The notes beneath the pieces were generated by a model. It did not search any database. It was not told the origin of the DNA and saw nothing but the letters and a program-made list of their open reading frames with translations. Shown piece after piece: positions 14,161 through 62,754 of a stretch of DNA of 64,000 bases. The position numbers and the translations under genes are program-made. Position 1 is the stretch's first letter. Each line of letters opens with the position of its first letter. Source of the stretch: Stomorhina lunata (lineage: Eukaryota > Arthropoda > Insecta > Diptera > Rhiniidae); assembly GCA_933228675.1 (NCBI GenBank), contig OW121743.1:108371468-108435467 (forward strand). The letters run 5' to 3'.

Positions 14161-15340
14161 TTTTTGCATAGGAGATTTTATATGGGCTATTCGTTGTTGG
14201 TCACATTAAGCTAATCACAACAAATTCTTACAAATTGTACAACAAAATAACCGCAAAAGAAAACAGAAAAAAATGGCCTCAAGATCTCTTCCTCAGCTAA
14301 TAAATGGAGGATGAACTGCGTATAAATGGATAATTGATGTGTGTGTAACATAGTACATCAATACTTTGGCGTTCAACGCAAAATAACAGAACAGATTCCC
14401 TGAAAAAGACTACAAAGCGAAAAAAGAAAACCAAAGACGAAGATAGTACAGCTGAATGATGAAGATGGCGGTGGTTAATAGTGATGAAGATGAGATGATG
14501 CTGGTGATGTAGCGTAAAAGTAGCATTATCAGTAGTAAAGTAAAGTAAAACCTTTGAATGCAGTTTCTTCAATTATTTATTTATTTGCACTCAGACTCTG
14601 TTCGTACTCCTGCTCCACATATCCAACATGCCCCAAAAAATGAATATTGCATACACTTTGCTCTGATGCATGTTGTGCTGTAATGCATGCGTTGCACATA
14701 CATTTTTTGTGCGTTTTATAGAACGAGTACATCATGTTTCATTTTGACGAAAATTATGCAAATCACGCTCGGTACAATGAATTATTTATGAAACGTATGA
14801 AAGCACATCATAAATTTTCTTGTTTCAATCACCGACAACAAGACGAGACAGAACAGACACAGGAGCTATCCAACGAAAGGTTGTACCCTTTCGTACTCTT
14901 AATTTGTGTAATTTTGTTTAAATATTTTTTATAGTAGTTGTGTTTTTTCAGATATATTTACATATATTTTTTACCAATACATTGTTTCGTTAATTTATGT
15001 TCTATATATCACTTCAGATTTTTTCCCCGTTGTCTTTGCTCTGTTTTAGAGCGAAGAAAAATGACAAAAATTTGCTTAAGGGCATTTGTTTTTTAAAAAA
15101 TGTTTTTACACAAATTTATGTGTTTTTGTACATTTTAAAGCGTTGATTAAATTTCATTTTTTTTTTGTGGAATTTTTTTGAACGAACGGGGTAAAAAAAC
15201 AAAAAAGTACTTAAATTTCATTATTTGAAATGGCTGCTATGTTTCTGTATTTTGAGTGTTTCAAAAATTTAGTTTATAAATCGACGGTCTTTAATACAAG
15301 CATTTTACTAAAAAAGTTTTAAAAAATAATTTTGTAACAT
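14161..15340. other. Noncoding region of more balanced composition
   Basis: This is a break between two big minisatellites with higher GC and no repeat structure. ORFs of 91 codons (minus) and 66 codons (plus) show no recognisable domain. It may be single-copy DNA. I see no exon signal strong enough to call. Confidence 0.5.
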
Positions 15341-18300
15341 AAAAAATTTACGATATCAAATTTTTGTAAAGAAACTTTCGATACATAAATTTTTTATAGA
15401 AAATTTGTGGTATTAAATTTTTTAATGGAAAATTTTCAGTATTCAATTTTTTATGGAATATTTTCGGTATTAAAGTCTTTTTATAGAAAATTTTCGGTAT
15501 GTATTAACATTTTTTATACATATTATTGGTATTAAAATCTTTTGTAGAAAATTTTGGATATACATTTTTTTTTACCGAAAATTTTCGTTATTTAAATTTT
15601 TTATTGAAAATTTTCGACATTAAAATATTTTGTAGAAAATTTTCGATACTATAATTTTTTATAGAAAATTTCGATATTAAAATTTTTTATATAAAATTTT
15701 CGATATTAAAATATTTTGCAGGAAAATTTCGGTATTCAAATTTTTTATAAAAAATTTTTGGTACTAAGTTTTTCTTAGAAAATTTTCGGTATTATATTTT
15801 TTTTAGAAAATTTTCGGTATTCAAATTTTTTATAGGAAATTTTCAGTATTATATTTTTTTTTAAATTTTTGGTATATAAGTTTTTATAGAAAATTTCGAT
15901 ATTAAAATTTTTTATATAAAATTTTCAATATTAAAATTTATTATAGAAAATTTTCGATATTTAAATTTTTTATAGAAAATTTTTGGTATTAAATTTTTTA
16001 ATGGAAAATTTTCGGTATTAAATTTTTTATGGAATATTTTCGGTATTAAAATCTTTTTATAGAAAATTTTCGGTATGTATTAACATTTTTTATACACATT
16101 TTTGGTATTAAAATCTTTTGCAGAAAATTTTGGATATAAATTTTTTTTACCGAAAATTTTCGTTATTTAAATTTTTTATTGAAAATTTTCGACATTAAAA
16201 TATTTTGTAGAAAATTTTCGACACTATAATTTTTAATAGAAAATTTCGATATTAAAATTTTTTATATAAAATTTTCGATATTAAAATATTTTGCAGGAAA
16301 ATTTCGGTATTCAAATTTTTTATAAAAAATTTTTGGTACTAAGTTTTTCTTAGAAAATTTTCGGTATTATATTTTTTTTAGAAAATTTTCGGTATTAAAA
16401 TTTTTTATAGGAAATTTTCAGTATTATATATTTTTTTTTTTAATTTTTGGTATTTAATTTTTTATAGAAAATTTCGATATTAAAATTTTTTATATAAAAT
16501 TTTCGATATTAAAATTTCTTGCAGGAAAATTTCGGTATTAAAATTTTTTATAAAAAATTGTTGGTACTAAATTTTTTCTTAGAAAATTTTCGGTATTATA
16601 CTTTTTTTTAGAAAATTTTCGGTATTAACATTTTTTATAGGAAATTTTAAGTATTAATTTTTTTTTTAATTATTGGTATTTAAATTTGTTAAGGAAAATT
16701 TCCGGTATTAAAATTTTTTACATAGAATTTTTGGTATTCAAATTTTTTATAGAAAATTTTCGATATTACAATTTTTTGTAGAAAATGTTCGGTATTCAAA
16801 TTTTTTATAAAAAATATTCTTTTTTAGAAATATTTCGGTATTAACATTTGTTATAGAAATTTTTTTGTAGAAAATTTTCGATATTTAAATTTGTTTATAA
16901 AAATTTTTGATATTAAATTTTTTTATCGAAAATTTTCGTTATTGACATTTTTTATTGAAAATTTTCGATATTAAAATATTTTGTAAAAAATTTTCGATAT
17001 TAAAATTTTTTATAAGAAATTACGATATTAAAACTTTTCATAGAAAATTTTAGATATTAAAATTTTTTTAGGAAAATTTCTGTATTAAAATTTTTTATAA
17101 AAAATTTTTGGTTGTAAGAAAATTTAAAAAAAAAAAATTTTCGTATTAAAATTTGCTATAGAAAATCTCTGGTATTAAAATTTATATAGAAAAAATTAAA
17201 ATTTAATTAAAAACTTTTATATAAAATTTCGGGATTAAAATTTTTTATAAAAAGTTTTGGGTAAATAAATTTTTTAGAGAAATTTTATGGTATTAAAATT
17301 AGCTATATAAAATTTTCGACATTAAAATTTTTTATATAAAATTTTTGGTATTCAAATTTTTTATAGAAAATTTTCGATATTAAAATCTTTTGTGGAAAAT
17401 TTTCTCTATTAAAATTGAAAAAAAAAAATTTCGGTTCTAAGTTCTTTTATAGAAAATTTTCGGTATTAACATTTTTTATAGATAATTTTTGGTAGAAAAT
17501 TTTTGATATTAAAATGTTTTTATAAAAAATTTTTGACATTAAATTTTTTTATAGAATATATTTGTTTTTGAAATTTTTTATATAAAATTTTCGACATTAA
17601 AATGTTTTGTAGAAAATTTTTAATATTAATTTTTTTTTATAGAAAATTTTATAAGAAATTATAGAAAAAAATCGGTATTAAAATTTTTTGTGGAAAATTT
17701 TCGGTATTAAATTTTTTTATACAAAATTTTCGGTGCTAAGTTTTTTTTTTTGGAAATTTTTGGTATTACAATTTTTTTTAGAAAATTTTAGGTATTAAAA
17801 TTTGCTAGAGAAAATTTCAAAACTAATTAAAATTTAACTACAATTAATTAAAATTTAATTAAAATTTTTCATATATAATTTTTCGTATTCAATTTTTTAT
17901 AGGAAATTTTTGGTATTAAAATTTTTTTTAGAAAATTTTCGGTATTAAAATTTTTGATAGGAAATTTTTTGTATTAAAACTTTTTTAGAAATTTTTCGGA
18001 TTTCAAAATTTTTAATAGGAAATTTTTGGTATTAAAACTTTTTTTTAGAAAATTTTCGGTATTAAAATTTGCATAGAAAATATCCGGCATTAAAATTTTT
18101 GGTATTAAAATTTTTTTTAGAAAATTTTCGGTATTAAAATTTTTAATAGGAATTTTTTTGTATTAAAACTTTTTTAGAAAATTTTCGGATTTCAAAATTT
18201 TTAATAGGAAATTTTTGGTATTAAAACTTTTTTTAGAAAATTTTCGGTATTAAAATTTGCATAGAAAATATCCGGCATTAAAATTTTTTATACAAAATTT

Positions 18301-18990
18301 TTGGTATTCAAATTTTTTATAGGAAATTTTCGGTATTAAAATTATTTTTAGAAAATTTTCGGTATTAAAAGTTGCTATAGAAAATTTTCGGTATTAAAAT
18401 TTTCTATAGGAAATTTCCGGCATTTAAATTTTTTATAAAAAATTTTTGGTATTAAAATTTTTTTTAGAAAATTTTCGGTATTAAAATTTTTAATAGGAAT
18501 TTTTTTGTATTAAAACTTTTTTAGAAAATTTTCGGATTTCAAAATTTTTAATAGGAAATTTTTGGTATTAAAACTTTTTTTAGAAAATTTTCGGTATTAA
18601 AATTTGCATAGAAAATATCCGGCATTAAAATTTTTTATACAAAATTTTTGGTATTCAAATTTTTTATAGGAAATTTTCGGTATTAAAATTATTTTTAGAA
18701 AATTTTTGGTATTAAAAGTTGCTATAGAAAATTTTCGGTATTAAAATTTTCTATAGGAAATTTCCGGCATTTAAATTTTTTATAAAAAATTTTTGGTATT
18801 AAAATTTTTTATAGAAAATTTTCGGTATTTCAATTTTTTATAGCTAATTTTTATATTAAAATTATTTATAAAAATGTTTTAATATTAAATTTTGTTTATA
18901 GAAAATTTTCGATATTAAATTTTTGATAGAAAATTTTCGGCATTAAGTCTTGTAAAGAACATTTTCGATTTTCTGTATTTAATTTTTCGT
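15341..18990. repeat. 3.6-kb 29-bp minisatellite, 'TTTTCGGTATTAAAATTTTT' type
   Basis: The unit is closely related to the 10340-14160 array, with GATATT changed to GGTATT. Higher-order structure is present. The variant TTTTCGGTATGTATTAACAT recurs at an offset of 576 (15501 and 16077). A block with 'TTTTAATAGGAATTTTTTTG' recurs at an offset of 347 (18144 and 18491), and a weaker relative lies near 17950. Confidence 0.95.
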
Positions 18991-32305: not shown

Positions 32306-32833
32306 ACTCTAAGAAGTTTTTGAAAAATCGCAAAAATTATCTCAAAACAAAAAACATTTTTTTTTCCAAACAAAACAAAACAATTCCAAAATTAAACTAA
32401 AAAACTAATAAGTGTTCCTGAAACATAATTTTGTTGCCAATTTTCGATTTTTTTACTTTGTTCAAGAAAATAAATAGTTTTCGAGTTACGTGAATATCTA
32501 TTGAGCAACCTTCTTCATTATTTTATATAGCTTTATCTCGAAAAATAGCGCTAACCTAAAAAAACTGTTCTCACCTCGATTTATCTTTACCCACTAGGTC
32601 TCCCTTTTGGCGGTAAAAAAAGTTGTTAAAATCGAGCACGGTCTAATTAAATAATTTGTCAATGATGAATTTTTGCAAATTTCTGAGTTTTTAGAAAATT
32701 TTATATTGCACTTACAATTTAAAATTTTATTCGGAACACGCCTTAAGTTTATTAAAGTGAAAGTGTTTTATTTAAAAAAGCAAAGCAAACATGAAAGTTT
32801 ATTTATTAATTCTGCTCTATTTACGAATTATTA
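32306..32833. other. Noncoding spacer
   Basis: No gene or repeat is recognised. Confidence 0.5.
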
Positions 32834-32984
32834 ATCATAATTCCCATTATTTGTGCTTCGAATTTAGTTTTTTATACTTATCTTTAATATAATTAATGTT
32901 ATTGTTTTTGTAAAAAATTGTTATAGCATTATTTAGAATGTTTATTAATAATAAATGTCAATAAACAAATGATTTTTTTCTATG

Positions 32985-33240
32985 CCTCTTTAGAGTGTCC
33001 GAAAGGTAAAATGTTATTTTTTGTACCCACCATCAAAAGGAATCAGGGTATATTGAGAGAGATAGTCATTCCGTTTTTAATTTCCTTAATATTGGCTCAA
33101 AACCATAAGTATCTGTGTATTCTGAATCCTTACGAAATTCTAAGACAATTGAACGATGTCCATCTGTCCGCCTGTCTGTTGTCGGCGCGATAGGGCCTGA
33201 ACGAAAGAAGGTAGGTCATTGAAAATTCGCAAAAAAATAT
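32985..33240 (+). repeat. Dispersed repeat FR3 fragment
   Basis: Landmarks are TTTTTTGTACCCACCATC, AGGGTATATTGAGAGAGATA, GTCATTCCGTTTTTAATTTC, and CATCTGTCCGCCTGTCTGTT followed by GAACGAAAGAAGGTAGGTC. A diverged relative lies at 46160-46330. From memory this is a fly dispersed repeat type; a 74-codon ORF spanning it is not a gene. An identical copy lies at 35407-35662. Confidence 0.6.
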
Positions 33241-33353
33241 CAATTTCTTGAAAAAAGTTAGTATTGAAATTCTGCAAACTCGGTTTACATTTGACTATAG
33301 CTTCAGTATAATCGCTTATTTGCCAATTAATAACAAATCTTAACACTTATGAT

Positions 33354-33715
33354 CAGGAGTAGGCAGCTCACATTACCAGCAGCCGAGGAATTTCTTTAAT
33401 TTTCGTAAATTCCACGATCATTAATAGAAATCGTGAAAATGAGTTTTAAAGTCATTCAGTTGGAATTTGGATGTTAACAGAGTTGGTTGGTGCCGCTTTA
33501 TTAAAGAAAAGACAAAAACAAATAGGCAAGAAACAAATCAAAATCCAATTTATAGCAACAAAATACATGGTTCTAGAGAGCAACGAAATATAATCTTGAA
33601 CATTGTTGCCACGACACTATTATTTTTGTAAACATTAGGAATATTTTTGTAAATATTGGGAACATTTTTCAAAACAGAAATAAATTCTAATATTAAACAA
33701 TTTTAGATATTTATA
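33354..33715 (+). repeat. Dispersed repeat FR6, copy 1
   Basis: It starts AGGAGTAGGCAGCTC and contains GAGTTGGTTGGTGCCGCTTT, AATCCAATTTATAGCAACAA and CATTGTTGCCACGACACTAT. It then runs into the 30-bp minisatellite. A second copy (35776-36137) is part of the duplication. An independent, diverged copy at 59949-60295 is also followed by the same minisatellite. Confidence 0.85.
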
Positions 33716-35255
33716 TTATTTTTTTTTTTAGATATTTTTGATCAAAAATATTGTACATGAAAAATTTTTGATAAAACATTTTCCATAAAAAAGTTTTGAT
33801 CAAAAATTTTGCATAGAAAAATTTTTCATCAAAAATTTTGCATAGAAAAATTTTTGATCAAAAATTTTGCATAGAAAAATTTTGATCAAAAATTTTCCAT
33901 AGAAAAATTTTTTAAAAAAATTGTTCCATAGATATTTTTTATAAAAAAGTTTCTATAGAAAAATTTTTTATAAAAAAAGTTTCTATGGAAAAATGTTTGA
34001 TAAAAAAAGTTTCTATAAAAAAATTTTTGATAAAAAATTTTATATAGAAAAATTTTTGATAAAAAATTTTATATAGAAAAATTTTTGATAAAAAATTTTA
34101 TATAGAAAAATTTTTTATAAACAAATTTTTGATAAAATAATTTTCTATAGAATAATTTTTAATAAAAAAATTTCTATCGAAAAATTTTTGATAAAAAAAT
34201 TTTCTATAGAATAATTTTTGATAAAAAATTTTTCTATAGAAAAATTTTTGATAAAAAAATTTTCTATAGAAAAATTTTTGATAACAAAAATTTTCTATAG
34301 AAAAATTTTTGATAAAAAAGTTTTCTATAGAAAAATTTTTGATAAAAAAGTTTTCTATAGAAAAATTTTTGATAAAAAAGTTTTCTATAGAAAAATTTTT
34401 GATAACAAAAATTTCTATAGAAAAATTTATGATAAAAATAATTTTCTATAGAAAAATTTTTGATAAAAAAATTTTCTATAGAAAAATTTTTGATAAAAAA
34501 ATTTTCTTTAGAAAAATTTTTGATAAAAAAATTTTCTATCGAAAAATTTTTGATAAAAAAATTTTCTAAAGAAAAATTTTTGATAAAAAAATTTTCTAAA
34601 GAAAAATTTTTGATAAAAAAATTTTCTATAGAAAAATTTTTGATAAAAAAATTTTCTATAGAAAAATTTTTTGATAAAAAAATTTTCTATAGAAAAATTT
34701 TTGATAAAAAAATTTTCTATGGAAAAAGTTTTGATAAAAAATTTTCTATAGAAAAATTTTTGATAAAAAAATTTTCTATAGAAAAATTTTTGATAAAAAA
34801 ATTTTCTGTAGAAAAATTTTTGATGAAAAAATTTTCTATAGAAAAATTTTTGATAAAAAAATTTTCTATAGAAAAATTTTTGATAAAAAAATTTTCTATA
34901 GAAAAATTTTTGATAAAAAAATTTTCTATAGAAAAATTTTCTATAGAAAAATTTTTGATAAAAAAATTTTCTATAGAAAAATTTTTGATAAAAAATTTTC
35001 TATAGAAAAATTTTTGATAAAAAATTTTTCTATAGAATAATTTTTGATAAAAAAATTTTCTATAGATAAATTTTTAATAAAAAAATTTTCTATAGAAAAA
35101 TTTTTGATAAAAAAATTTTCTATAGAAAATTTTTTTATTAAAAATTTATCTATAGAAAATTTTTTTATCAAAAATTATTCTATAGAAAAATTTTTTATCA
35201 AAAATTTTTCTATAGAAAATTTTTTATCAAAAATTTTTCTATAGAAAATTTTTTT
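33716..35255. repeat. 30-bp minisatellite, 'GAAAAATTTTTGATAAAAAA' type, block A
   Basis: The unit is GAAAAATTTTTGATAAAAAA plus ATTTTCTATA, highly homogeneous between 34200 and 35130. From about 35131 to 35255 the units are in reverse orientation (TATAGAAAATTTTTTTATC). Because the unit length is divisible by three, ORFs such as the 181-codon KKFSIEKFLI repeat appear on both strands. They are not genes. Confidence 0.95.
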
Positions 35256-37552
35256 ATCATAATTCCCATTATTTGTGCTTCGAATTTAGTTTTTTATACT
35301 TATCTTTAATATAATTAATGTTATTGTTTTTGTAAAAAATTGTTATAGCATTATTTAGAATGTTTATTAATAATAAATGTCAATAAACAAATGATTTTTT
35401 TCTATGCCTCTTTAGAGTGTCCGAAAGGTAAAATGTTATTTTTTGTACCCACCATCAAAAGGAATCAGGGTATATTGAGAGAGATAGTCATTCCGTTTTT
35501 AATTTCCTTAATATTGGCTCAAAACCATAAGTATCTGTGTATTCTGAATCCTTACGAAATTCTAAGACAATTGAACGATGTCCATCTGTCCGCCTGTCTG
35601 TTGTCGGCGCGATAGGGCCTGAACGAAAGAAGGTAGGTCATTGAAAATTCGCAAAAAAATATCAATTTCTTGAAAAAAGTTAGTATTGAAATTCTGCAAA
35701 CTCGGTTTACATTTGACTATAGCTTCAGTATAATCGCTTATTTGCCAATTAATAACAAATCTTAACACTTATGATCAGGAGTAGGCAGCTCACATTACCA
35801 GCAGCCGAGGAATTTCTTTAATTTTCGTAAATTCCACGATCATTAATAGAAATCGTGAAAATGAGTTTTAAAGTCATTCAGTTGGAATTTGGATGTTAAC
35901 AGAGTTGGTTGGTGCCGCTTTATTAAAGAAAAGACAAAAACAAATAGGCAAGAAACAAATCAAAATCCAATTTATAGCAACAAAATACATGGTTCTAGAG
36001 AGCAACGAAATATAATCTTGAACATTGTTGCCACGACACTATTATTTTTGTAAACATTAGGAATATTTTTGTAAATATTGGGAACATTTTTCAAAACAGA
36101 AATAAATTCTAATATTAAACAATTTTAGATATTTATATTATTTTTTTTTTTAGATATTTTTGATCAAAAATATTGTACATGAAAAATTTTTGATAAAACA
36201 TTTTCCATAAAAAAGTTTTGATCAAAAATTTTGCATAGAAAAATTTTTCATCAAAAATTTTGCATAGAAAAATTTTTGATCAAAAATTTTGCATAGAAAA
36301 ATTTTGATCAAAAATTTTCCATAGAAAAATTTTTTAAAAAAATTGTTCCATAGATATTTTTTATAAAAAAGTTTCTATAGAAAAATTTTTTATAAAAAAA
36401 GTTTCTATGGAAAAATGTTTGATAAAAAAAGTTTCTATAAAAAAATTTTTGATAAAAAATTTTATATAGAAAAATTTTTGATAAAAAATTTTATATAGAA
36501 AAATTTTTGATAAAAAATTTTATATAGAAAAATTTTTTATAAACAAATTTTTGATAAAATAATTTTCTATAGAATAATTTTTAATAAAAAAATTTCTATC
36601 GAAAAATTTTTGATAAAAAAATTTTCTATAGAATAATTTTTGATAAAAAATTTTTCTATAGAAAAATTTTTGATAAAAAAATTTTCTATAGAAAAATTTT
36701 TGATAACAAAAATTTTCTATAGAAAAATTTTTGATAAAAAAGTTTTCTATAGAAAAATTTTTGATAAAAAAGTTTTCTATAGAAAAATTTTTGATAAAAA
36801 AGTTTTCTATAGAAAAATTTTTGATAACAAAAATTTCTATAGAAAAATTTATGATAAAAATAATTTTCTATAGAAAAATTTTTGATAAAAAAATTTTCTA
36901 TAGAAAAATTTTTGATAAAAAAATTTTCTTTAGAAAAATTTTTGATAAAAAAATTTTCTATCGAAAAATTTTTGATAAAAAAATTTTCTAAAGAAAAATT
37001 TTTGATAAAAAAATTTTCTAAAGAAAAATTTTTGATAAAAAAATTTTCTATAGAAAAATTTTTGATAAAAAAATTTTCTATAGAAAAATTTTTTGATAAA
37101 AAAATTTTCTATAGAAAAATTTTTGATAAAAAAATTTTCTATGGAAAAAGTTTTGATAAAAAATTTTCTATAGAAAAATTTTTGATAAAAAAATTTTCTA
37201 TAGAAAAATTTTTGATAAAAAAATTTTCTGTAGAAAAATTTTTGATGAAAAAATTTTCTATAGAAAAATTTTTGATAAAAAAATTTTCTATAGAAAAATT
37301 TTTGATAAAAAAATTTTCTATAGAAAAATTTTTGATAAAAAAATTTTCTATAGAAAAATTTTCTATAGAAAAATTTTTGATAAAAAAATTTTCTATAGAA
37401 AAATTTTTGATAAAAAATTTTCTATAGAAAAATTTTTGATAAAAAATTTTTCTATAGAATAATTTTTGATAAAAAAATTTTCTATAGATAAATTTTTAAT
37501 AAAAAAATTTTCTATAGAAAAATTTTTGATAAAAAAATTTTCTATAGAAAAA
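35256..37552 (+). repeat. 2.3-kb tandem duplication, copy B
   Basis: Second copy of 32834-35130 with FR3 (35407-35662), FR6 (35776-36137) and the minisatellite in the same order. The left junction has microhomology: ATCA is shared by the end of block A (TTTTTTATCA) and the start of the unit (ATCATAATTCCC). Confidence 0.9.
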
Positions 37553-38002
37553 TTTTTGATAAAAAAATTTTCTAAAGAAAAATTTTTGATAAAAAAATTT
37601 TCTATAGAAAAATTTTTGATAAAAAAATTTTCTATAGAAAAATTTTTGATAAAAAAATTTTCTATAGAAAAATTTTTGATAAAAAAATTTTCTATAGAAA
37701 AATTTTTGATAAAAAAATTTTCAATAGAAAAATTTTTGATAAAAAAATTTTCTATAGAAAAATTTTTGATAAAAAATTTTTGATAGAAAATTTTGATAAA
37801 AATTTTTTTATACACAAATTTTTGATAAAAAATTTTTTATAGAAAAATTTTTGATAAAAAATTTTTTATAGAAAAATTTTTGATAAAAACATTTTTTATA
37901 GAAAAGTTTTTTATAAAAAATTTTTTATAGAAAAATTTTTGATAAAAACATTTTTTATAGAAAAATTTTTTATAGAAAAATTTTTTATAGAAAAATTTTT
38001 GA
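36138..38002. repeat. 30-bp minisatellite, block B
   Basis: Same unit as block A, continuing beyond the duplicated part to 38002. The last 250 bases shift to a TTTTTTATAGAAAAATTTTT variant. ORFs of 181, 140 and 105 codons are repeat translations. Confidence 0.95.
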
Positions 38003-48411: not shown

Positions 48412-48579
<168 letters not shown>

Positions 48580-49984: not shown

Positions 49985-52745
49985 AAAATTTTTCTAGCAA
50001 AAATACAGTTTTTTATTGAAAATTTTCGTTACAAAATTTTCTATAAAAATATTTCATTATAAGTTTTAAAGACAATTTTCAATATAAAATTTTTTATAGA
50101 AAATTTTCCATATAAATTTTTTTATAGAAAATTTTCGATATAAAATTTTTTATATCCAATTTTCAATCTAAAATTTTGAATAGAAAATTTTTGATATACA
50201 ATTTTTTATATAAAATTTTCGATATACAATTTTTTGATATGAAATTTTCTAAGAAAAATTTTATATCGAAAATTTTTGATACAAAATTTTTATAGAAAGT
50301 TTTCGATATAAAAATTTCTATAGAAAATTTTGAATATAAAAATTTTTGTAGAAAAATTTCAATATAAACATGTTTATAGAAAATTTTCGATAAACAATTT
50401 TTTATAAAAAATTTTAGATATAAAATTTTTATAAAAAATTTTCGATAATACATTTTTTATAGAAAATTTTCGATAATAAATTTTTTATAGAAAATTTTCG
50501 ATAAACAATTTTTTATAGAAAATTTTCGAAAATACATTTTTTATAGAACATTTTCGATATAAAATTTTTTATAGAAAATTTTCGATATAAAATTTTTTAT
50601 AGAAAATTTTCGATATAAAATTTTTGATAGAAAATTTTCAATATAAAATTTGTTATAGAAAGTTTTCTATAATATATTTTTTTTTTAATAAAAATTTCTT
50701 TAATAGATAATTTTCGATAATGAATTTTTTATAGAAAATTTGCAATATAAATTTGTTTTTATAGAAAATTTTCGATATAACTTTTTTATAGAAAATTTTT
50801 GATATAATTTTTTTTTTTAAATTTGCGATATAAATTTTTCTTATAGAAAATTTTCGATATACAATTTTTTATAAAAAATTTTCGATTTACAATTTTTTAT
50901 AGAAAATTTTCGATATAATATAATTATAGAAAATTTTCGATAATAAATTTTTTTACGGAAAATTTTCGATTATAAATTTTTTATATAAAATTTTCGGAAA
51001 TACATTTTTTATAGAAAATTGCGATTATAAATTTTTTATAGAAAATTTTCGATAGTAAATTTTTTATAGGAAATTATCGATACAAAATTTTTTAGAGAAA
51101 ATTTTCTATACAAAATTTTTTATAGAAAATTTTCGAAAAAAAAATTTTTATAGAAAATTTTCGATACAAAATTTTTTATAGAAAATTTCGATACAAAATT
51201 TTCGATACAAAATTTTTTATAGAAAATTTTCGATACAAAATTTTTTATAGAATATTTTCGATACGAAATGTTTTATACAAAATTATCGATAATACATTTT
51301 TTATAGAAAAAATTCGATAATAAAATTTTTATAGAAAATTTTTGATAATAAAATTTTTTATAAAAAAAAATTTTTTACAGAAAGTTTTCAGATATAATTT
51401 TTTTTTATAGAAAATTTTTATCAACATTTTTCTATCAAATTTTCGATACAAAATTGTTTGTAGAAAATTTTCGAAACAAAATTTTTTATAGAAAATTTCC
51501 GTTTTTAAATTTGTAATAGCAAAATTTTCCATATAAAATTTTTTGTATAAACTTTTCGATATAAATATTTTTTTATAGAAAATTTTCGATACAAAATTTT
51601 TGTAGAAAATTTTCGTTATAAAATTTTTTTAAAATTAAAATTTTTTATATGAATTTAAAATGTTTTATATAAACTTCTTGATATAAATATTTTTTATAGA
51701 ACATTTTTGATATACATTTTTTATAGAAAATTTTCGATATAAAATTTTCGATATAAAATTTTTTATTGAAAATTTTCGATATAAAAATTTTTACAGAAAA
51801 TTTTCAATATAAAAATTTTTATAGAAAATTTTCGATATAAAATTTTTTATAAAAAATTTTCGATATAAAATTTCTTATAGAAAATTTTCGATATAAAATT
51901 TTTTATAAAAAATTTTAGATATAAAATTTTAATAGAAAATTTTCGATAATAAATTTTTATAGAAAATTTTCGTTAAAAAATTTTCGATTACAAATTTTGT
52001 ATAGAAAAATTTTTTATAGAAAATTTCCGATAATAAATTTTTTATCGAAAATTTTCGAGAGTAGATTTTTTATAGAAAATGTTCGATAATAAAATTTGTA
52101 TACAAAATTTTTGATAATTAATTTTTTATAGAAAATTTTCAATAATTTAATTATTTAGAAATTTTTTGATAATAAAATTTAAAAAAAAAAATTTTTGATA
52201 GTAAATTTTTGATTGAAAATTTTCAATATAAATTTTGTTTATTGAAAATTTGCGATAATAGCTTTTTTATAGAAAATTTGTGATATAAAAAATTTTCGAT
52301 AATAAATTTTTTATAGAAAATTGCGACACAAATTTTTTTATATAAAATTTTCGATATATTTTTTTAATAGAAAAGTTTTGACATGCAATATTTTATAGAA
52401 ACTTTTCGATATACAATTTTCTATAAAAAAAAATCGAATTAAAATTTTTTATAGAAAATTTTCGAAACAAATATTTTTATCGAAAAAACTTTGTATTGAA
52501 AATTTTCTAAGAAAAATTATATATCGAAAGTTTTCTAAGAAAAATTTTATAACAAAAATTTTCTAAGAAAAATTCTATATAAAAAATTTTCTAAGAAAAA
52601 TTTTATATAAAAAATTTTCTAAAAAAAATTTTGTTTCGAAAATTTTCTAAAAAAATTTTTTTTTCGATTTTTTTAAATGAAAAATTTGTGTGTAAAATTT
52701 TCGATATTATATTTTAAAAACAAAATTTTGATTTTAAAAATTTTA
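49985..52745. repeat. 2.7-kb 28-bp minisatellite, 'TTTTCGATATAAAATTTTTT' type
   Basis: About 95 diverged copies of TATAGAAAATTTTCGATATA plus AAATTTTT, a close relative of the 10340-14160 unit shortened by one base. Variants with GATAATAAATT and GATACAAAATT form local clusters. Minus-strand ORFs of 96 and 67 codons are repeat translations. Confidence 0.95.
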
Positions 52746-54413: not shown

Positions 54414-54418
54414 AGGCG
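54414..54418 (+). other. 5-bp target-site duplication, left
   Basis: AGGCG sits immediately before CACAGTG and is repeated at 59949-59953. A GC-rich 5-base duplication is the known signature of Transib insertion. Confidence 0.93.
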
Positions 54419-55787
54419 CACAGTGGTTTACGGACGCTTTTTTTTGGAAATAATTCTTTAACTTTTGAACGACTGGAGATATTTGAATGAAATTTGACAT
54501 GGTGATAGTCAAGGAGTATTCGAGTTGGTTTTTAAAAGCACTGGTCCATGAGGGGTCGGGAGAGTGATTGATGGACCTTCAAAGTTGGTCACCTCGGGTG
54601 TTCGACTTTTTTAAAAATTCGCCAAAAATCCATTTATGTATGGATTGAAAAGAAATTTTAAACTTAAGTTGTCCTTGAGAAGATCTACAAAAAATACGCT
54701 TAAATGTGTAGGTTATCTCCTTTGGATTTCGAGATATTTGGGTAAAAAGGAATTTTTAGGTTGATTTTTTACCTCTTTTTTTAAGCTTTTTTTGATCTGG
54801 TGGACGCATCTGAGGACCAAAAATTTTTTAAGAATATTCTTTAAATTTGTAATAAAATTCTGAATAATTTTTGTGCAAGTTAGTTATAGAAATCTTCTTT
54901 TGTTTAAAAGTTAAAAATATTCAAAGTTGAAACTTACAAAAAATTTCGCTTTTTTTTTAGTTTTTCCCCAAAAGATAGCTATATTTTTTCACTAATAAAA
55001 AAATATTTTCTTGAGAAACATAAAAAGATTTTTAAAGTTTTTAAAAGAAAACATAATGAGAATGCGTATAAAACAAATTTCTTGCTAATTGGACTTTTGG
55101 TCCTCGCACATGTCCTCTCCAAAAAATGGCAATTTGTAAAAAAAAAAATTAGTTTAAACAAAAATTTCTCAAAAGGCAAAGCACCGATTTGAAAAAAATT
55201 ATAATGTTCATATTTTCCAATATATCTGTTATTGATTAGAAAAGTTTTTTCTGAAACGCGCTGCAAATAGAGACAGTGTTGCCATATTTGTAAAAAAACT
55301 CATTTTTTGAAACACCTTTTTCCCCAGTTGGGAATTGGGGAATTTTTAAGTTAAAATTGGGAATTTTTTTTAGTCTATTGCTTTTACATCTTATTGGTCT
55401 ACATTATTACAAAATTTCATTGTAATATCTTTATCCATGTCATTTCCACAGAATATCAAAGATTAAAAATATTTTCCTTAAAAAAGCAGAAAAACAATTT
55501 TTTTTTGTTTTACGATACAAAGTGTAAAAAAAGTAACGCACTTAAAAAAAACTTTTACTTAGTGCTAATCTCCTAGTCTTTCCCGATCTAATGATACTAA
55601 ACATGTATATAAAGCATTAATACCGAGTCTTAAAAAACTCTGAAAAGTTTGGCCCCCGTAGCATTTTTACACTGTTTATTTAAATATAAGTGATGAATTT
55701 GTGCATATAAAGTTAATTATCATACTCAAATATTTCACTATTTTTAAGATGACAATGATCCTTCGCTAATAAACAAATATTTTCTTC
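54419..55787 (+). repeat. Transib left terminal inverted repeat (~1.36 kb)
   Basis: It matches 58588-59948 in inverted orientation almost to the base. Early differences include TTTAAC against TGTAAC, GTGATAG against GTGGTAG and ATTCGAG against ATTTGAG. The conceptual 95- and 60-codon frames within both arms differ by single residues only. Similarity fades about 40-50 bases inside GATGACAATGATCCTTCG. The ORFs in the arms are probably not genes. Confidence 0.93.
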
Positions 55788-56206
55788 AAAAAGATATAAA
55801 TAGTTTTTTATTTTTTTAAAGAAAACATTATAAGAATGACTTAAAAAAATTTTATTCGATTTTGCCTTTTGTTCCAAGCTAAAAAATAAAATTTTAGTAA
55901 AAGATTCTAAATAAGTAAGTACGAGTAAGGCACCGATTTTGATAACAGTGTAAAGGTAATATATCCATAATTTGTAGCAAAAGTTTAATTAGAAGAGTAC
56001 TTTTATAGTAACAGTGTGACAATTTATTTAAAATAAGATTTAAAGGCATTTTTCCGGTATTTAAAATTGGTGTATTTGAAAAAATTGCAAAATTATGTTA
56101 AGGTTATAAAATGTTTTTTAATGTGAAAGTTAATGCAATAGGTAAAAATTGTTACAACTTGGGTTTTTCATAATGGTCAGAAAGGATATGGTTACTCACC
56201 TCCATA

Positions 56207-56390
56207 CAGGTAGGTTTTACGAGACGCACATATTGGTTGAGTTATATATGCACCTATTTTTAGAGGTAAAAAATACATTAATTCATTGATTTCTTTATTA
56301 TTCTTTGGATACAGGTATATATAAAAAATGTTTTTTTTTAATATAAAAAAGAAAGTTTTAAATGTAACTGCTATTAACAGTTAAAACATC
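56207..56390 (+). promoter_or_regulatory. Possible leader signals of the transposase gene
   Basis: TATATATAAAA at 56316-56326 could be a TATA box 65-75 bases before the ATG. Alternatively CAG|GTAGGT at 56207-56212 is a good splice donor, and TGCTATTAACAG ending at 56380 a plausible acceptor, giving a 5'-UTR intron. The two readings compete, and the sequence alone does not decide. Confidence 0.3.
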
Positions 56391-58427
56391 ATGGCTATAA
56401 CATTGGAATTTAAAGTGTTGTGCGATATTCTTTTTGAACTACCAAGCAGTTCGAGAGCAGAAAAAATTAAAATAATCATGCGATATGCTAAAAGTCAAAC
56501 TAACTCCATGATTCTCAATAGTGAGGAAGACAAAGTCGTAAAATTTGTAAAGTTATTTGAACTTAAAATTAAGTCGGTTAATTACTGTTTAAAAAGATTT
56601 GAATCTAAATTTAAAGACTGGCTGAAGGACTCAATTGAGCTTAAAACTTCTGGTGCTGGAGCCCCTCTAAAAAACTATGATGATCTCGGAGAAAGATCTA
56701 AAAAGATGCGATTATCCGAAGTTCTTTCTACTCATTCGGATACTGAAATCAAAGATTCCTTTAAGGAAGTGCTCAAACGAAATAATCAACCAGCTGAAGC
56801 TAAACAAATAGCAGATATTCTCCCAGAGGCTTCTCCTAAACGTCTTAAGCGAATTATTAAGAGTATACCAACTCCTTCTTCTCAATCAGAATTTTCGGAG
56901 GAAGAAGCACTTGCTCTTATGCTCGAGTTGAAATTGAGTAAAAATAAATATATTAAACTCTGTAAGGCATTACGAGACAAAGGACACTCAATTTTACCAG
57001 GATATAATGCGTTATTAAAAACCAAAAAAAACTTAATACCAACAAACGTGATAGGAGACGAAAGTGCATCTGTGGATTTATCAAAATTATTGGAAAATAC
57101 GGCATCAAGGCTGATATCTACTACATTGTCTGAAGAAGAAGCCAAGAAACTTGACAACAAGGACTTAACTTTAATATGTAAATGGGGATGTGACGGTTTA
57201 TCTGGATTACCGGAATACAAACAATCAACATCTCATCAGAACACAAATGACTACAGAAGCGTTTTTATGGCATCCCTAGTACCACTAAGATTAAGAAAGA
57301 ATCGTTCTGAACCATCCACATCAAAAGAGCGTACTGAATATGTGTGGGTTAACACATCTCCAGGATCAAAGGCATTTTGCAGACCGATCAGATTCGAATA
57401 TTTAAAAGAAAATGCAGCAAGCACAAAAAATTGGGTTGATGATATCAAATATTCAATAGACAATTTGAGTCCAGTCTGCATAGACATACATGGATATTTG
57501 ATTAATGTAAATTTTGAGCTTCAATTGACAATGATAGATGGAAAAGTAAGCAACGCTATAACGGAAACCCATTCAACTTGGAAATGCTCATTATGCGGAA
57601 AGAAGAAATCGGAATTTCTACAAACTTCAGAAGATGCATCAGCTAGTACTGCAATTAATCAAGAGGTTCTGGAATTTGGTATATCGCCCCTACATGCACG
57701 TATCCGATTTTTAGAATTTATGCTACATATAGCATATGATCTGAAATATAGGAATATACCTGATAATCAGCTAAAATCCGTGAGAAATAATAAGGAACTG
57801 ATTGAAATGAGATCCAGTGAAAAAAAAAGGATTCAGGAAGAATTCAAAACTATGACGGGTCTAAACATAGACAAACCACTTGTAGGATATGGCAGTACAA
57901 ACGATGGTAATACGGCCAGGCGATTCTTTGAAAATTATGAAACAACTTCAAAGATTACTGGAATTGATGAGGAAGTTCTTCGTAAATGTTACGTAATATT
58001 ATCGGCAATAAATAGCAAATATCAAATAAATGCTGAAAAATTTCATTGCTATGCCCTCAACGCGTTAACTCGTATACGACATTTGTATCACTGGAAAGAA
58101 ATTACACCAACAGTTCATAAAGTCCTTCAACATGGTCGTGAAATAATTGAATCAAATCTTCTCCCACTTGGTGAACTGACAGAAGAGGCCCAGGAAGCGC
58201 GGAATTCAGATTTCAAGTATATCCAACTATTTAATACCAGAAAATGCTCAAGAAAATCGCAAAATCAGGATCTAATAAATTATCTCTTGTTGTCTTCTGA
58301 TCCTGCTCTATCAACGATAAGAAAGAAATGGTGGAGCAGTTATACAAAAACTTCTGAAAACGAACACCTAGAAGAGGTTCTTGATATAATAGATTGTACT
58401 GATTATTTTACTGAAAATAAAAATTAA
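56391..58427 (+). CDS. Transib (RAG1-related) transposase, 678 aa
   Basis: Cuts and pastes the surrounding element, acting in the nucleus on its CACAGTG ends by an RNase H-like DDE mechanism with hairpin chemistry related to RAG1. Residues 1-150 are the poorly conserved N-terminal part; a basic stretch (SKKMR, 103-107) follows GAP at 90-92, where relatives often carry GRP. The catalytic core is complete. D268 lies in KWGCDGLSG, D383 in MIDGKV and E602 in EEAQEARN. The probable zinc site is C399 and C402 (CSLC) with H576 and H581 (HKVLQH), which by my alignment from memory correspond to RAG1 C727, C730, H937 and H942. The start is fixed by an in-frame TAA at 56382-56384. Length matches the family (about 650-700). 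No frameshift or stop is seen. No RAG2-like partner is encoded. Confidence 0.95.
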   Translation: MAITLEFKVLCDILFELPSSSRAEKIKIIMRYAKSQTNSMILNSEEDKVVKFVKLFELKIKSVNYCLKRFESKFKDWLKDSIELKTSGAGAPLKNYDDLGERSKKMRLSEVLSTHSDTEIKDSFKEVLKRNNQPAEAKQIADILPEASPKRLKRIIKSIPTPSSQSEFSEEEALALMLELKLSKNKYIKLCKALRDKGHSILPGYNALLKTKKNLIPTNVIGDESASVDLSKLLENTASRLISTTLSEEEAKKLDNKDLTLICKWGCDGLSGLPEYKQSTSHQNTNDYRSVFMASLVPLRLRKNRSEPSTSKERTEYVWVNTSPGSKAFCRPIRFEYLKENAASTKNWVDDIKYSIDNLSPVCIDIHGYLINVNFELQLTMIDGKVSNAITETHSTWKCSLCGKKKSEFLQTSEDASASTAINQEVLEFGISPLHARIRFLEFMLHIAYDLKYRNIPDNQLKSVRNNKELIEMRSSEKKRIQEEFKTMTGLNIDKPLVGYGSTNDGNTARRFFENYETTSKITGIDEEVLRKCYVILSAINSKYQINAEKFHCYALNALTRIRHLYHWKEITPTVHKVLQHGREIIESNLLPLGELTEEAQEARNSDFKYIQLFNTRKCSRKSQNQDLINYLLLSSDPALSTIRKKWWSSYTKTSENEHLEEVLDIIDCTDYFTENKN

Positions 58428-58455
58428 GTAAATAACTACTTTTATATAAATATGT

Positions 58456-58501
58456 AATAAAAACTGTAAGTTTAAACTTTAACTACAAATACTTCAATAA
58501 A
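58456..58501 (+). terminator. Polyadenylation signals of the transposase gene
   Basis: Two AATAAA hexamers, at 58456-58461 and 58496-58501, lie 29 and 69 bases after the stop codon and before the right inverted repeat. This suggests the transcript ends inside the element. Confidence 0.6.
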
Positions 58502-58587
58502 ATGTATTTCACCTTTTAATATAAGTACAAATTATTTACATTTTGATATTTCATAAATCCTCATGATATTTTCTTTAAAAAAATAAA

Positions 58588-59948
58588 AAAATATTTGTTT
58601 GTTATCGAAGGATCATTGTCATCTTATAGTGAAATATTTGAGTATGATTATTAATTTTATATGCACAAATTCATCACTTATATTTAAATAAACAGTGTAA
58701 AAATGCTACGGGGGCCAAAGTTTTCAGAGTTTTTTAAGACTCGGTATTAATGCTTTATATACATGTTTAGTATCATTAGATCGGGAAAGACTAGGAGATT
58801 AGCACTAAGTAAAAGTTTTTTTTAAGTGCGTTACTTTTTTTACACTTTGTATCGTAAAACAAAAAAAAATTGTTTTTCTGCTTTTTTAAGGAAAATATTT
58901 TTAATCTTTGATATTCTGTGGAAATGACATGGATAAAGATATTACAATGAAATTTTGTAGTAATGTAGACCAATAAGATGTAAAAGCAATAGACTAAAAA
59001 AAATTCCCAATTTTAACTTAAAAATTCCCCAATTCCCAACTGGGGAAAAAGGTGTTTCAAAAAATGAGTTTTTTTACAAATATGGCAACACTGTCTCTAT
59101 TTGCAGCGCGTTTCAGAAAAAACTTTTCTAATCAATAACAGATATATTGGAAAATATGAACATTATAATTTTTTTCAAATCGGTGCTTTGCCTTTTGAGA
59201 AATTTTTGTTTAAACTAATTTTTTTTTTTACAAATTGCCATTTTTTGGAGAGGACATGTGCGAGGACCAAAAGTCCAATTAGCAAGAAATTTGTTTTATA
59301 CGCATTCTCATTATGTTTTCTTTTAAAAACTTTAAAAATCTTTTTATGTTTCTTAAGAAAATATTTTTTTATTAGTGAAAAAATATAGCTATCTTTTGGG
59401 GAAAAACTAAAAAAAAAGCGAAATTTTTTGTAAGTTTCAACTTTGAATATTTTTAACTTTTAAACAAAAGAAGATTTCTATAACTAACTTGCACAAAAAT
59501 TATTCAGAATTTTATTACAAATTTAAAGAATATTCTTAAAAAATTTTTGGTCCTCAGATGCGTCCACCAGATCAAAAAAAGCTTAAAAAAAGAGGTAAAA
59601 AATCAACCTAAAAATTCCTTTTTACCCAAATATCTCGAAATCCAAAGGAGATAACCTACACATTTAAGCATATTTTTTGTAGATCTTCTCAAGGACAACT
59701 TAAGTTTAAAATTTCTTTTCAATCCATACATAAATGGATTTTTGGCGAATTTTTAAAAAAGTCGAACACCCGAGGTGACCAACTTTGAAGGTCCATCAAT
59801 CACTCTCCCGACCCCTCATGGACCAGTGCTTTTAAAAACCAACTCAAATACTCCTTGACTACCACCATGTCAAATTTCATTCAAATATCTCCAGTCGTTC
59901 AAAAGTTACAGAATTATTTCCAAAAAAAAGCGTCCGTAAACCACTGTG
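58588..59948 (-). repeat. Transib right terminal inverted repeat (~1.36 kb)
   Basis: Inverted copy of 54419-55787, ending GCGTCCGTAAACCACTGTG. It differs by a handful of substitutions and small indels, for example CACTATAAGATG against CACTATTTTTAAGATG near the inner end. Confidence 0.93.
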
Positions 59949-60295
59949 AGGCGTAGGCAGGCCATACCACCAGAAGCCGAAGAATTTTTGTAATTTTCGT
60001 AAATACCACAATCTTTAATAAAACTCGTGAAAATGAGTATTAAAATCAATCAGTTTAAATATGGATGTTAACAGAGTTGGTTGGTGCCGCTTTGTTAAAG
60101 AAAAGACAGAAACAAAATAGGCAAGAAAAAAATCAAAATCCAATTTATAGCAACAAAATAAATGGTTCGAGAGAACAAATAATAATCTCAACATTGTGGC
60201 CACGACGCTATTAGTTTAGTAAACATTGGGAATATTTTTCAAAACAAAAATAAATTCTTATATGAAACAATTTTAGATTTTTATATTTTTTCGAC
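59949..60295 (+). repeat. Dispersed repeat FR6, copy 3 (Transib target), with right 5-bp duplication
   Basis: The first five bases, AGGCG, are the right target-site duplication. The following TAGGCAGGCC, GAGTTGGTTGGTGCCGCTTT, AATCCAATTTATAGCAACAA and TGTGGCCACGACGCTATTAG match FR6 at 33354-33715 at roughly 85-90 percent by eye. It again leads into the 30-bp minisatellite. The transposon therefore split a copy of FR6 near its left boundary. Confidence 0.88.
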
Positions 60296-61070
60296 ATTTT
60301 CGATCCAAACATTTTTTTTAGAAAAATTTTTAATAAAAATATTTTTCTTTGGAAATTTTTTCGATAAAAATATTTTTCATTTGAAATTTTTTGATAAAAA
60401 GGTTTTCTATAAAAAAATTTTTGACAACAAGATTTAAAAAAAATAACATAATTGTCGAGATGAATCGAGGTGAATATTATTAAAAAAGAAAGATCATTTG
60501 CATTTAGTCTTGATCTGTTACATTTATTTATTTATAACCAATAACCAAAAGATTTTCTAGAGAAAAATTTTAGATAGAAACATTTTTTATCAAAAAATTT
60601 TTCTCAAAAAATAACATTTGATTATTTGCATTTGAAATCAATAACTATAACAGATCGAGATCAAATGCAAATAATCTTTCTTTTTAAAAAATTTCTATAG
60701 AAAAATTTTTGATAAAAAAATTTTATATTGAAAATTTTTTATCAAAAATGTATCTATAGACAATTTTTTGATAAAAATGATATATCCTAATATTTCTATT
60801 AATTCAATATAAAGTTGGAGTAATTAATTCTTAAAAAAAACTTCGATAGAAAAATTTTTGATAAAAAAATTTTCTACAGAAAAATTTTTGATAAAAAAAT
60901 TTTCTATAGAAAAATTTTTGATAAAAAATTTTATATAGAAAAATTTTTGATAAAAAAATTTTCTATAGAAAAATTTTTGATAAAAAAATTTTCTATAGAA
61001 AAATTTTTGATAAAAAAATTTTCTATAGAAAAATTTTTGATAAAAAAATTTTCTATAGAAAAATTTTTGA
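60296..61070. repeat. 30-bp minisatellite, block D, with an internal inverted repeat
   Basis: Diverged units at 60296-60440 and 60535-60605 and homogeneous units at 60845-61070. In between, AAAGAAAGATCATTTGCATT with CTTGATCTGTTAC (about 60485-60520) is mirrored by GTTATAGTTATT-side text ending AAATGCAAATAATCTTTCTT (60640-60685), an imperfect foldback. Confidence 0.85.
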
Positions 61071-62754
61071 AAAATTAGGTTTAATCAGGCTTGAGTTCAT
61101 TTAACTTTCAAATTATTAATTTTGAAAATTTGGAAAGTAATTGTGGAGAAAAACTGAAAAAATTATTTTTGAACGCGGCTCAGTGGATTGCAATTTCTGT
61201 CCCGCCACAGGACGTCATCAGCACTTAGCGCCCTCGACCACAGTCGAGTTGTCAAATTGCAGAGATAATCATCAATTTAACTCATTGAGTTTGATCGAAC
61301 ATCACTACATTTAATTGATTGTGTATTCTCCTATTACTTGTTTTGCTCGATCTTTTCACTTGCCGTTGGCATGTAGAGAAGAACAAGACTTTTTGGTTTG
61401 ATGCTATTTTTAGAATAGTAACAATGTTAACAACATATGTATGTAAGTAAATTACATGAATGTATGTAAATGCAACGTGCCCTTTGCTTTTTATTTATTT
61501 GGGAATTAATTATTCGAACTTTAGAATTGATTGAAAAATTAGGTTTAATCAGGCTTGAGTTCATTTAACTTTCAAATTATTAATTTTGAAAATTTGAAAA
61601 GTAATTGTGGAGAAAAACTGAAAAAATTATTTTTGAACGCGGCTCAGTGGATTGCAATTTCTGTCCCGCCACAGGACGTCATCAGCACTTAGAGCCCTCG
61701 ACCACAGTCGAGTTGTCAAATTGCAGAGATAATCATCAATTTAACTCATTGAGTTTGATCGGACATCACTACGTTTAATTGATTGTGTATTCTCCTATTA
61801 CTTGTTTTGCTCGATCTTTTCACTTGCCGTTGGCATGTAGAGAAGAACAAGACTTTTTGGTTTGATGCTATTTTTAGAATAGTAACAATGTTAACAACAT
61901 ATATATGTAAGTAAATTACATGAATGTATGTAAATGCAACGTGCCCTTTGCTTTTTATTTATTTGGGAATTAATTATTCGAACTTTAGAATTGATTGAAA
62001 AATTAGGTTTAATCAGGCTTGAGTTCATTTAACTTTCAAATTATTAATTTTGAAAATTTGAAAAGTAATTGTGGAGAAAAACTGAAAAAATTATTTTTGA
62101 ACGCGGCTCAGTGGATTGCAATTTCTGTCCCGCCACAGGACGTCATCAGCACTTAGCGCCCTCGACCACAGTCGAGTTGTCAAATTGCAGAGATAATCAT
62201 CAATTTAACTCATTGAGTTTGATCGAACATCACTACGTTTAATTGATTGTGTATTCTCCTATTACTTGTTTTGCTCGATCTTTTCACTTGCCGTTGGCAT
62301 GTAGAGAAGAACAAGACTTTTTGGTTTGATGCTATTTTTAGAATAGTAACAATGTTAACAACATATGTATGTAAGTAAATTACATGAATGTATGTAAATG
62401 CAACGTGCCCTTTGCTTTTTATTTATTTGGGAATTAATTATTCGAACTTTAGAATTGATTGAAAAATTAGGTTTAATCAGGCTTGAGTTCATTTAACTTT
62501 CTAATTATTAATTTTGAAAATTTGAAAAGTAATTGTGGAGAAAAACTGAAAAAATTATTTTTGAACGCGGCTCAGTGGATTGCAATTTCTGTCCCGCCAC
62601 AGGACGTCATCAGCACTTAGAGCCCTCGACCACAGTCGAGTTGTCAAATTGCAGAGATAATCATCAATTTAACTCATTGAGTTTGATCGAACATCACTAC
62701 GTTTAATTGATTGTGTATTCTCCTATTACTTGTTTTGCTCGATCTTTTCACTTG
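61071..62754 (+). repeat. 464-bp tandem repeat, three full copies plus a truncated fourth
   Basis: The landmark AGGTTTAATCAGGCTTGAGT begins at 61077, 61541, 62005 and 62469, a constant period of 464. Copies differ at a few sites (for example TTAGCGCCC or TTAGAGCCC, and GATCGAACATC or GATCGGACATC). The unit contains CTCGACCACAGTCGAG, a near-palindrome, and TGTCCCGCCACAGGACG. The fourth copy stops at TTTTCACTTG (62754). No ORF spans it. Confidence 0.95.

What the first reader, a model, noticed from the sequence alone, without database searches (positions are those of the whole stretch)
54419..59948. Apparently intact, possibly active Transib (RAG1-family) transposon
Seen: one uninterrupted 678-codon ORF with D268, D383, E602, CSLC and HKVLQH; CACAGTG at both ends; perfect AGGCG duplications. 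Known: Transib is the family from which the RAG1 core and recombination signals are thought to derive, and its ends resemble the RSS heptamer. Here the heptamer equals the vertebrate consensus. Inference: recent insertion, possibly still mobile.
Basis: partly seen in the sequence, partly recalled or inferred. Interest (0 to 1): 0.92.

Follow-up and report, generated by a model that had tools for sequence, protein, structure and literature searches.

The report
Recently multiplied fly RAG1-like jumping gene
This is an intact cut-and-paste transposon of the Transib family, relatives of the enzyme that cuts antibody genes; its insect host carries hundreds of very similar copies, so it jumped very recently and may still be moving.

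Summary
Confirmed at its exact coordinates. The element at 54419-59948 (5530 bp) carries one 678-codon transposase gene, ends in CACAGTG and sits between perfect AGGCG duplications. The protein matches Hztransib, the Transib with known biochemistry (E 9.7e-90; D268/D383/E602 align with its D126/D225/E436; fold TM 0.90 on the solved chain), far better than RAG1-like proteins.

The host genome (728 Mb, probably a fly) supports recency. The exact 38-bp terminus occurs 1350 times and 39 bp around D268 516 times (reversed controls 0). All 65 copies scored by protein, the best of 2031 candidates, have open full-length frames. Of 73 copies with both ends resolved, 71 have perfect 5-bp duplications. 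Empty paralogous sites exist. Seventeen copies, chosen for similarity, average 0.52 private substitutions per kb. A 3.9-kb non-autonomous family shares the ends. Arm ends are recombinant mosaics.

Verdict: a new member of a known kind, with long exchanging arms. Present mobility is likely but unproven.

The parts
54414..54418 (.). left target-site duplication AGGCG
   Evidence: perfect 5-bp duplications in 71 of 73 copies with both ends resolved (window, 16 of 16, 54 of 56)
54419..55786 (+). left terminal inverted arm (to 55741: 1323 bp ungapped with 9 mismatches; to 55786: 1368 bp at 98.8% with gaps)
54419..54425 (+). terminal heptamer CACAGTG, equal to the consensus RSS heptamer
   Evidence: consensus RSS heptamer given in PMC8289069 (passages); 38-bp terminus occurs 1350 times in the genome
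56391..58427 (+). Transib transposase gene, one uninterrupted frame, 678 aa
57192..57194 (+). codon of catalytic D268 (Hztransib D126)
57537..57539 (+). codon of catalytic D383 (Hztransib D225)
57585..57596 (+). CSLC, C399 and C402, invariant pair; zinc binding inferred (recalled from RAG1/Transib)
58116..58133 (+). HKVLQH, H576 and H581, invariant pair; zinc binding inferred (recalled)
58194..58196 (+). codon of catalytic E602 (Hztransib E436)
58496..58501 (+). AATAAA after the gene, possible polyadenylation signal (read by eye)
   Evidence: sequence; no test run
58585..59948 (-). right terminal inverted arm
59942..59948 (-). terminal heptamer CACAGTG on the minus strand
59949..59953 (.). right target-site duplication AGGCG

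Best explanation
An autonomous Transib DNA transposon. Its gene, one open frame, makes a RAG1-core-like DDE transposase that pairs the two CACAGTG ends, cuts at the heptamer (by Hztransib precedent leaving blunt transposon ends and hairpinned flanks) and joins the ends to both strands of a new site 5 bp apart, giving a 5-bp duplication, preferably at GC-rich near-palindromic [AC]C[GA]N[CT]G[TG]. The family has multiplied to several hundred very similar copies in its host genome recently and probably still moves; a related 3.9-kb non-autonomous family with the same ends and even longer arms probably uses the same enzyme. Its long arms exchange sequence, which helps to keep them alike and reshuffles the outer ~280 bp. 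Shown here: anatomy, homology, predicted fold, target duplications, empty sites, copy number, low divergence, arm mosaicism. Inferred: the cleavage chemistry, present activity, cross-mobilisation, and the route of arm exchange.
For: Hztransib match E 9.7e-90 over residues 162-657 versus 1.4e-4 for a RAG1-like chain; Foldseek best hits are Hztransib (E 1.2e-34, TM 0.90 on the target), then RAG1 (E 4.1e-21) (model pLDDT 88.6). Catalytic residues align with Hztransib D126, D225, E436. Perfect 5-bp duplications in 71 of 73 copies with both ends resolved (window, 16 of 16, 54 of 56). TSD GC 60% versus 34% in flanks, n=51. Empty paralogues: 114 bp at 100% through the junction of one copy, 300 bp at 99.3% for another. 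1350 exact termini and 516 exact 39-bp stretches around D268, reversed controls 0; 65 of 65 scored ORFs open. 49 private substitutions in 17 copies of 5.5 kb.
Against: No direct sign of movement now: no polymorphic allele, footprint or transcript was examined. The 17 aligned copies were chosen by near-identity to the window's left arm, so the divergence is biased downward; the 65 ORFs are the best-scoring ones. 9 of the 16 full-length copies read have a broken frame (some could be assembly errors). In the first 100 termini 22 have no facing partner. Of 59 ORF-selected copies one has no matching duplication, one a 6-bp duplication, and 3 lack an end in the fetched stretch. The empty-site evidence for the window copy itself is modest. 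Pfam gave no RAG1/Transib hit, but its library evidently lacks PF26100, which is precomputed for many homologues.
Confidence: 0.9

Rival explanations
1. The family is a Transib that burst recently but is now silenced; all insertions are fixed relics, many still looking intact because they are young.
For: 9 of 16 fetched full-length copies have lost the frame, and private substitutions in the ORF show no third-position excess (11, 3 and 7 at codon positions 1, 2 and 3), as in copies decaying without constraint. The mean private divergence of 0.05% fits an age of order 1e5 generations at Drosophila-like rates (rates recalled, not from a call).
Against: 65 of 65 scored ORFs are open and 64 tie in score; two of 17 copies have no private substitution.
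Confidence: 0.33
2. Copies were spread by segmental duplication, or homogenised by gene conversion, and not by transposition.
For: Arm ends clearly exchange sequence, so conversion or recombination does act in this family.
Against: Copies share exact ends but not flanks, each with its own 5-bp duplication, and empty sites carry a single copy of the duplicated bases.
Confidence: 0.03
3. The gene is a domesticated RAG1-like host gene that only looks like a transposon.
For: The frame is intact and its key residues are conserved; some relatives carry names of host proteins.
Against: Complete ends, target duplications, 516 copies of the stretch around D268 and non-autonomous partners.
Confidence: 0.01
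4. It is a RAG-like (ProtoRAG/RAGL) transposon with RAG1L and RAG2L genes.
For: It has a RAG1-like fold and a CAC heptamer.
Against: Only one long ORF is present; the next start-to-stop ORF is 112 aa. Similarity to Hztransib is far higher, and both ends carry the same arm.
Confidence: 0.01

Closest known systems
Hztransib of Helicoverpa zea (PDB 6pqn, 6pqx; GenBank DQ788836)
   Same: Same transposase family and fold, same DDE residues, 5-bp target duplication; its 3518-bp element is also described as having long TIRs (PMC1852546, passages).
   Different: 36-39% identity in the Foldseek alignments. This element is 5.5 kb with a 678-aa protein where the first Hztransib report deduced 489 aa. The length of Hztransib's TIRs is in a figure not held, so arm length could not be compared.
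Drosophila melanogaster transib1-4
   Same: Dipteran Transib DNA transposons; some insertions differ between strains (PMC10299278, passages).
   Different: Elements of 2.2-2.9 kb with TIRs of 40-45 bp and 3-27 annotated copies (same paper), against 5.5 kb, ~1.37 kb and hundreds of copies here.
P0001 and the Stomoxys protein P0032 in the protein database
   Same: Near relatives in sequence (61% identity over 100% and 51% over 62% of the query) and in the tree (window with P0001, SH-aLRT 99; P0032 in the same 19-row clade).
   Different: Their ends and copy number, and the host of P0001, are unknown; no DNA was fetched for them.
Galileo and Foldback-like elements
   Same: Unusually long inverted arms (Galileo abstract, PMC3688188).
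   Different: Galileo belongs to the P-element superfamily with a THAP domain (same abstract); unrelated transposase.
Vertebrate RAG1 and recombination signals
   Same: RAG1 fold and heptamer CACAGTG (PMC8289069, passages).
   Different: No RAG2 gene seen; both ends carry the same arm, so there is no 12/23 asymmetry; no nonamer was demonstrated.

Membership tests
Transib superfamily | Transposase homologous to known Transib transposases, closer than to RAG1/RAG1L | tested here: met
   6pqn E 9.7e-90 versus 6b40 E 1.4e-4; Foldseek ranks Hztransib first
Transib superfamily | DDE catalytic triad at the Transib positions | tested here: met
   D268, D383, E602 align with Hztransib D126, D225, E436 and are invariant in 54 sequences
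Transib superfamily | 5-bp target-site duplication | tested here: met
   71 of 73 copies with both ends resolved
Transib superfamily | Ends starting with a CAC heptamer | tested here: met
   CACAGTGG at all 114 resolved ends of 118 fetched and at the ends of 16 of 16 full copies
Transib superfamily | GC-rich target sites | tested here: met
   TSD GC 60% versus 34% in flanks, n=51; GC bias for Transib stated in PMC8289069 (passages)
Transib superfamily | A single gene, no RAG2-like partner | tested here: met
   Next longest start-to-stop ORF in the element is 112 aa; single gene stated as the rule in PMC4411706 (passages). No gene finder for split genes was run
Transib superfamily | Hairpin formed on the flank during excision | not testable with these tools
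   Chemistry reported for Hztransib (PMC6941560, passages); needs an assay
RAGL / ProtoRAG transposon | Convergent RAG1L and RAG2L genes | tested here: not met
   Only one long ORF
Vertebrate-type 12/23 RSS ends | Heptamer, 12 or 23 spacer, nonamer, asymmetric pair | tested here: not met
   Heptamer identical, but both ends share the same arm sequence, so there is no 12/23 pair; nonamer only looked for by eye

The most novel reading that the evidence does not exclude
A Transib lineage whose kilobase-long arms are kept alike, and whose ends are continually reshuffled, by recombination between the two arms, so that the body can flip between its ends; the long arms are an evolved part of the transposition system, since a diverged non-autonomous family (arms ~1.61 kb in the one copy read in full, about 90% like those of the autonomous element) keeps them too.
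Probability: 0.35. Interest if true: 0.6.

Novelty: new member of a known kind. Interest (0 to 1): 0.5.

Why it matters
In the papers seen here, Hztransib is the Transib with demonstrated biochemistry. A second family with hundreds of very similar copies, tens of them with open and apparently identical transposase genes, intact RSS-heptamer ends and empty-site controls is a natural system for studying how RAG1-like enzymes behave as transposons inside a living genome. The many young insertions also give a target-site profile from nature, and the mosaic arms show recombination acting on transposon ends.

Tried and rejected
Pfam scan of the transposase and three homologues: no RAG1/Transib family; uninformative, because these three homologues have PF26100 precomputed and the scan did not find it in them either. 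Viral contigs: 35 pattern matches, none confirmed. Rfam and tRNA scans of the window: nothing. Paper searches for Transib with long terminal inverted repeats (no paper) and with foldback, long TIR or gene conversion (15 of 129 listed) brought no description of this family; that covers only the held open-access library, and the 2005 paper on RAG1 and Transib was not held. None of the 15 listed papers of the fly-family search (15 of 1,175) holds the word Transib.

Considered and rejected: a RAGL element (one long gene only); a domesticated gene (hundreds of copies with ends); segmental duplication (flanks differ, own duplications). I first took position 595 of the left arm as a fixed left-right difference; it is not among the shared variants of the 17-copy alignment, so it is not used. 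A T-rich stretch after a 12-bp spacer was considered by eye as a nonamer and dropped (wrong polarity, AT-rich genome). An earlier count said 8 of 16 fetched copies have intact frames; the right count is 7 of 16.

Not achieved: a search for an empty allelic site of the copy on contig C4 was asked five times and never answered. The second predicted structure, the second and third protein searches and the other fold libraries were not used.

Full report
WHAT IS THERE. The element spans 54419-59948 (5530 bp).

WHAT THE PROTEIN IS. By sequence the best solved relative is Hztransib (6pqn, E 9.7e-90, residues 162-657); the only other hit up to E 1 is the RAG1-like chain 6b40 (E 1.4e-4). The Hztransib catalytic residues are D126, D225 and E436 (PMC6941560, passages); their spacings (99 and 211) equal those of the chain residues that line up with D268, D383 and E602 (counted by hand). 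A protein search gave 92 relatives, the best 61% identical, most of them unnamed; named insect hits include Stomoxys, Lucilia, Eurosta, Colias, Trachymyrmex and Periplaneta. In an alignment of the window protein with 53 of the 92, the triad and C399, C402, H576 and H581 are invariant. A tree of 87 rows (window plus 86 of 92; P0074, P0076, P0079, P0082, P0090 and P0092 dropped beforehand for foreign domains or odd names) joins it to P0001 (SH-aLRT 99), inside a 19-row clade with the Stomoxys protein. The predicted structure (mean pLDDT 88.6, pTM 0.73) matches Hztransib on nicked ends first (TM 0.90 on the target, 0.64 on the query) and mouse RAG1 next (E 4.1e-21).

THE HOST GENOME. Exact matches to the 38-bp terminus: 686 + 664 = 1350, control 0 and 0. 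Exact matches to 39 bp around D268: 259 + 257 = 516, control 0 and 0. The first 100 listed termini, all on the first 60.6 Mb of contig C1, make 39 facing pairs and 22 unpaired ends; of the 39 pairs, 29 are 5.37-5.54 kb, 6 are 3.87-3.98 kb, 2 are about 2.1 kb, and 2 are longer (7.3 and 13.4 kb, perhaps holding other insertions). A protein search scored 65 of 2031 first-look candidates: all 65 are full-length open frames, the window copy at 1510.1 bits and the other 64 at 1507.4. Five of those 64 were read in full and differ from the window protein only by L17Q. The scored 65 are the best matches, so the fraction of all copies that are intact is not known from this.

COPIES READ IN FULL. 16 of 20 hold a full-length copy (99.2-99.9% identical to the window copy); of the other 4, one has an internal deletion (L023), one is an arm fragment (L010) and two are truncated or rearranged (L027, L028). 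All 16 have perfect 5-bp duplications; 7 of 16 keep the 678-codon frame and 9 have it broken, two pairs of copies at the same place; some of these may be assembly errors. With the window copy, 17 sequences carry 49 private substitutions, 0.52 per kb, gap columns left out; two copies carry none. At recalled Drosophila rates of 3-5e-9 per site and generation this is about 1-2 x 1e5 generations on average; assembly error would inflate it and the choice of copies deflates it.

ENDS AND TARGETS. For the 59 of the 65 ORF-selected copies not already in hand (the other six are the window and five of the 16), 390 bp around each end was fetched. Both ends were found in 56; 54 have perfect 5-bp duplications, one (L133) reads as a 6-bp duplication, one (L095) has none; in 3 (L055, L075, L081) one or both ends are missing from the stretch. 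All 114 resolved ends begin CACAGTGG. From 51 sites with duplications (of 52 with exact ends among the 57 copies in hand at that time) the target is C (75%), G/A (84%), N, C/T (90%), G (65%), preceded by A/C (86%) and followed by T/G (80%); the strict form C[AG]N[CT]G fits 10 of 51 sites against 0.6% of flank 5-mers; GC is 60% in the duplication and 34% in the flanks. Empty sites: the joined flanks of the copy at C1:4.66 Mb equal the window's own 464-bp tandem repeat at 61149-61262 and 62077-62190 over 114 bp at 100%; those of L018 match two other loci over 300 bp at 99.3% and 98.0%. For the window copy the evidence is modest: its right flank belongs to a dispersed repeat that begins close to the insertion, and of 42 rows (40 of 3182 candidates scored) 38 extend leftward past the duplicated AGGCG, by 1 to 20 bases, 34 of them by at least 5.

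LONG ARMS AND THEIR EXCHANGE. Among the 17 aligned copies the shared variants (gap columns left out) are 13 sites, all in the arms; ten of them are five mirror pairs at 40, 87, 103, 188 and 279 bp from each end. They define two main arm-end types, TACCC and GGTTT. Copies carry either type on either side: in 55 ORF-selected copies with complete markers, left/right is GGTTT/TACCC in 12, GGTTT/GGTTT in 12, TACCC/GGTTT in 4, TACCC/TACCC in 2, and 25 carry at least one other, mostly recombinant-looking, end. All four combinations occur for 7 of 10 marker pairs on the left and 9 of 10 on the right, some through single copies, where a repeat mutation or an error is possible. Hence arm ends recombine with each other, within or between elements. 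The other three shared sites, near the inner edge of the arms, also look like arm-to-arm transfer in a minority of copies. Whether exchange is conversion of ends or flipping of the body was not resolved.

A NON-AUTONOMOUS PARTNER. One 3949-bp copy read in full (L147) has arms of about 1.61 kb at 97.5% identity to each other and 90.4-90.5% to the autonomous arms over 1299 bp, the same first 38 bp, a CGTCG duplication and no frame over 104 aa. A second, partial copy sits beside the element of L024 (94-95% to L147). Of six shorter elements whose ends were read, 5 have perfect duplications; the exception (L148) is a hybrid of the two arm kinds. Arms within each family are more alike than arms between families, as expected if arms are homogenised; independent formation of the arms is not excluded. 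That the Transib enzyme moves these partners is inferred from the shared ends.

HOW IT PROBABLY WORKS. By homology: a transposase complex pairs two ends, cuts at the heptamer, hairpins the flanks (reported for Hztransib, PMC6941560, passages) and inserts at sites 5 bp apart. The 5-bp duplications and GC-rich targets are shown here; the chemistry is not.

WHAT IS KNOWN AND WHAT IS NOT. Transib, its 5-bp duplications, RSS-like heptamers (PMC4411706 and PMC8355894, passages) and even long arms (Hztransib, PMC1852546, passages) are known. D. melanogaster Transibs have 40-45 bp TIRs (PMC10299278, table seen in passages). I found no description of this family in the listings of the held library, which is only the open-access part of the literature; Repbase was not searched. 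So: a new member of a known kind, notable for its fresh, large burst and its recombining kilobase arms.

Noticed in passing
window 32828-37677: A 2.43-kb stretch is directly duplicated in tandem (32828-35254 and 35250-37677, 99.1% identical), including AT-rich minisatellites.
   Followed up: partly
window 61067-62754: A 464-bp tandem repeat (3.6 copies, 99%) with a further inverted piece to about 63156; its units match the empty target of another Transib copy on contig C1.
   Followed up: partly
window, many places (e.g. 3959-5154, 10359-14127, 15339-18967, 50009-52659): Kilobases of AAAATTTTT-type minisatellites with 28-30 bp periods; the window is only 24% GC.
   Followed up: no
window 24802, 32268, 42175: A repeat with the near-palindrome CACCATAGGTGGAAAGGGTATTA (two exact, one with one mismatch); other Transib copies (L015, L089, L093) sit at the centre of this palindrome, so it may be a favoured target.
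   Followed up: partly
G000 C1:32263932-32274985 (L149-L151): Two full-length copies lie back to back with only CGATG between them; the second is flanked by CGATG on both sides, the first has no matching duplication.
   Followed up: partly
L018 insertion site: This copy sits inside a repeated, coding-looking sequence whose other copies in L010 and L012 are uninterrupted there.
   Followed up: no
window 54972-55073 and 55746-55847: A diverged (75-78%) repeat in the left part of the element, about 770 bp apart, suggests that the arms grew partly by internal duplication.
   Followed up: no
window 48415-48578: A CAGA microsatellite of 41 units, 96% matches.
   Followed up: no
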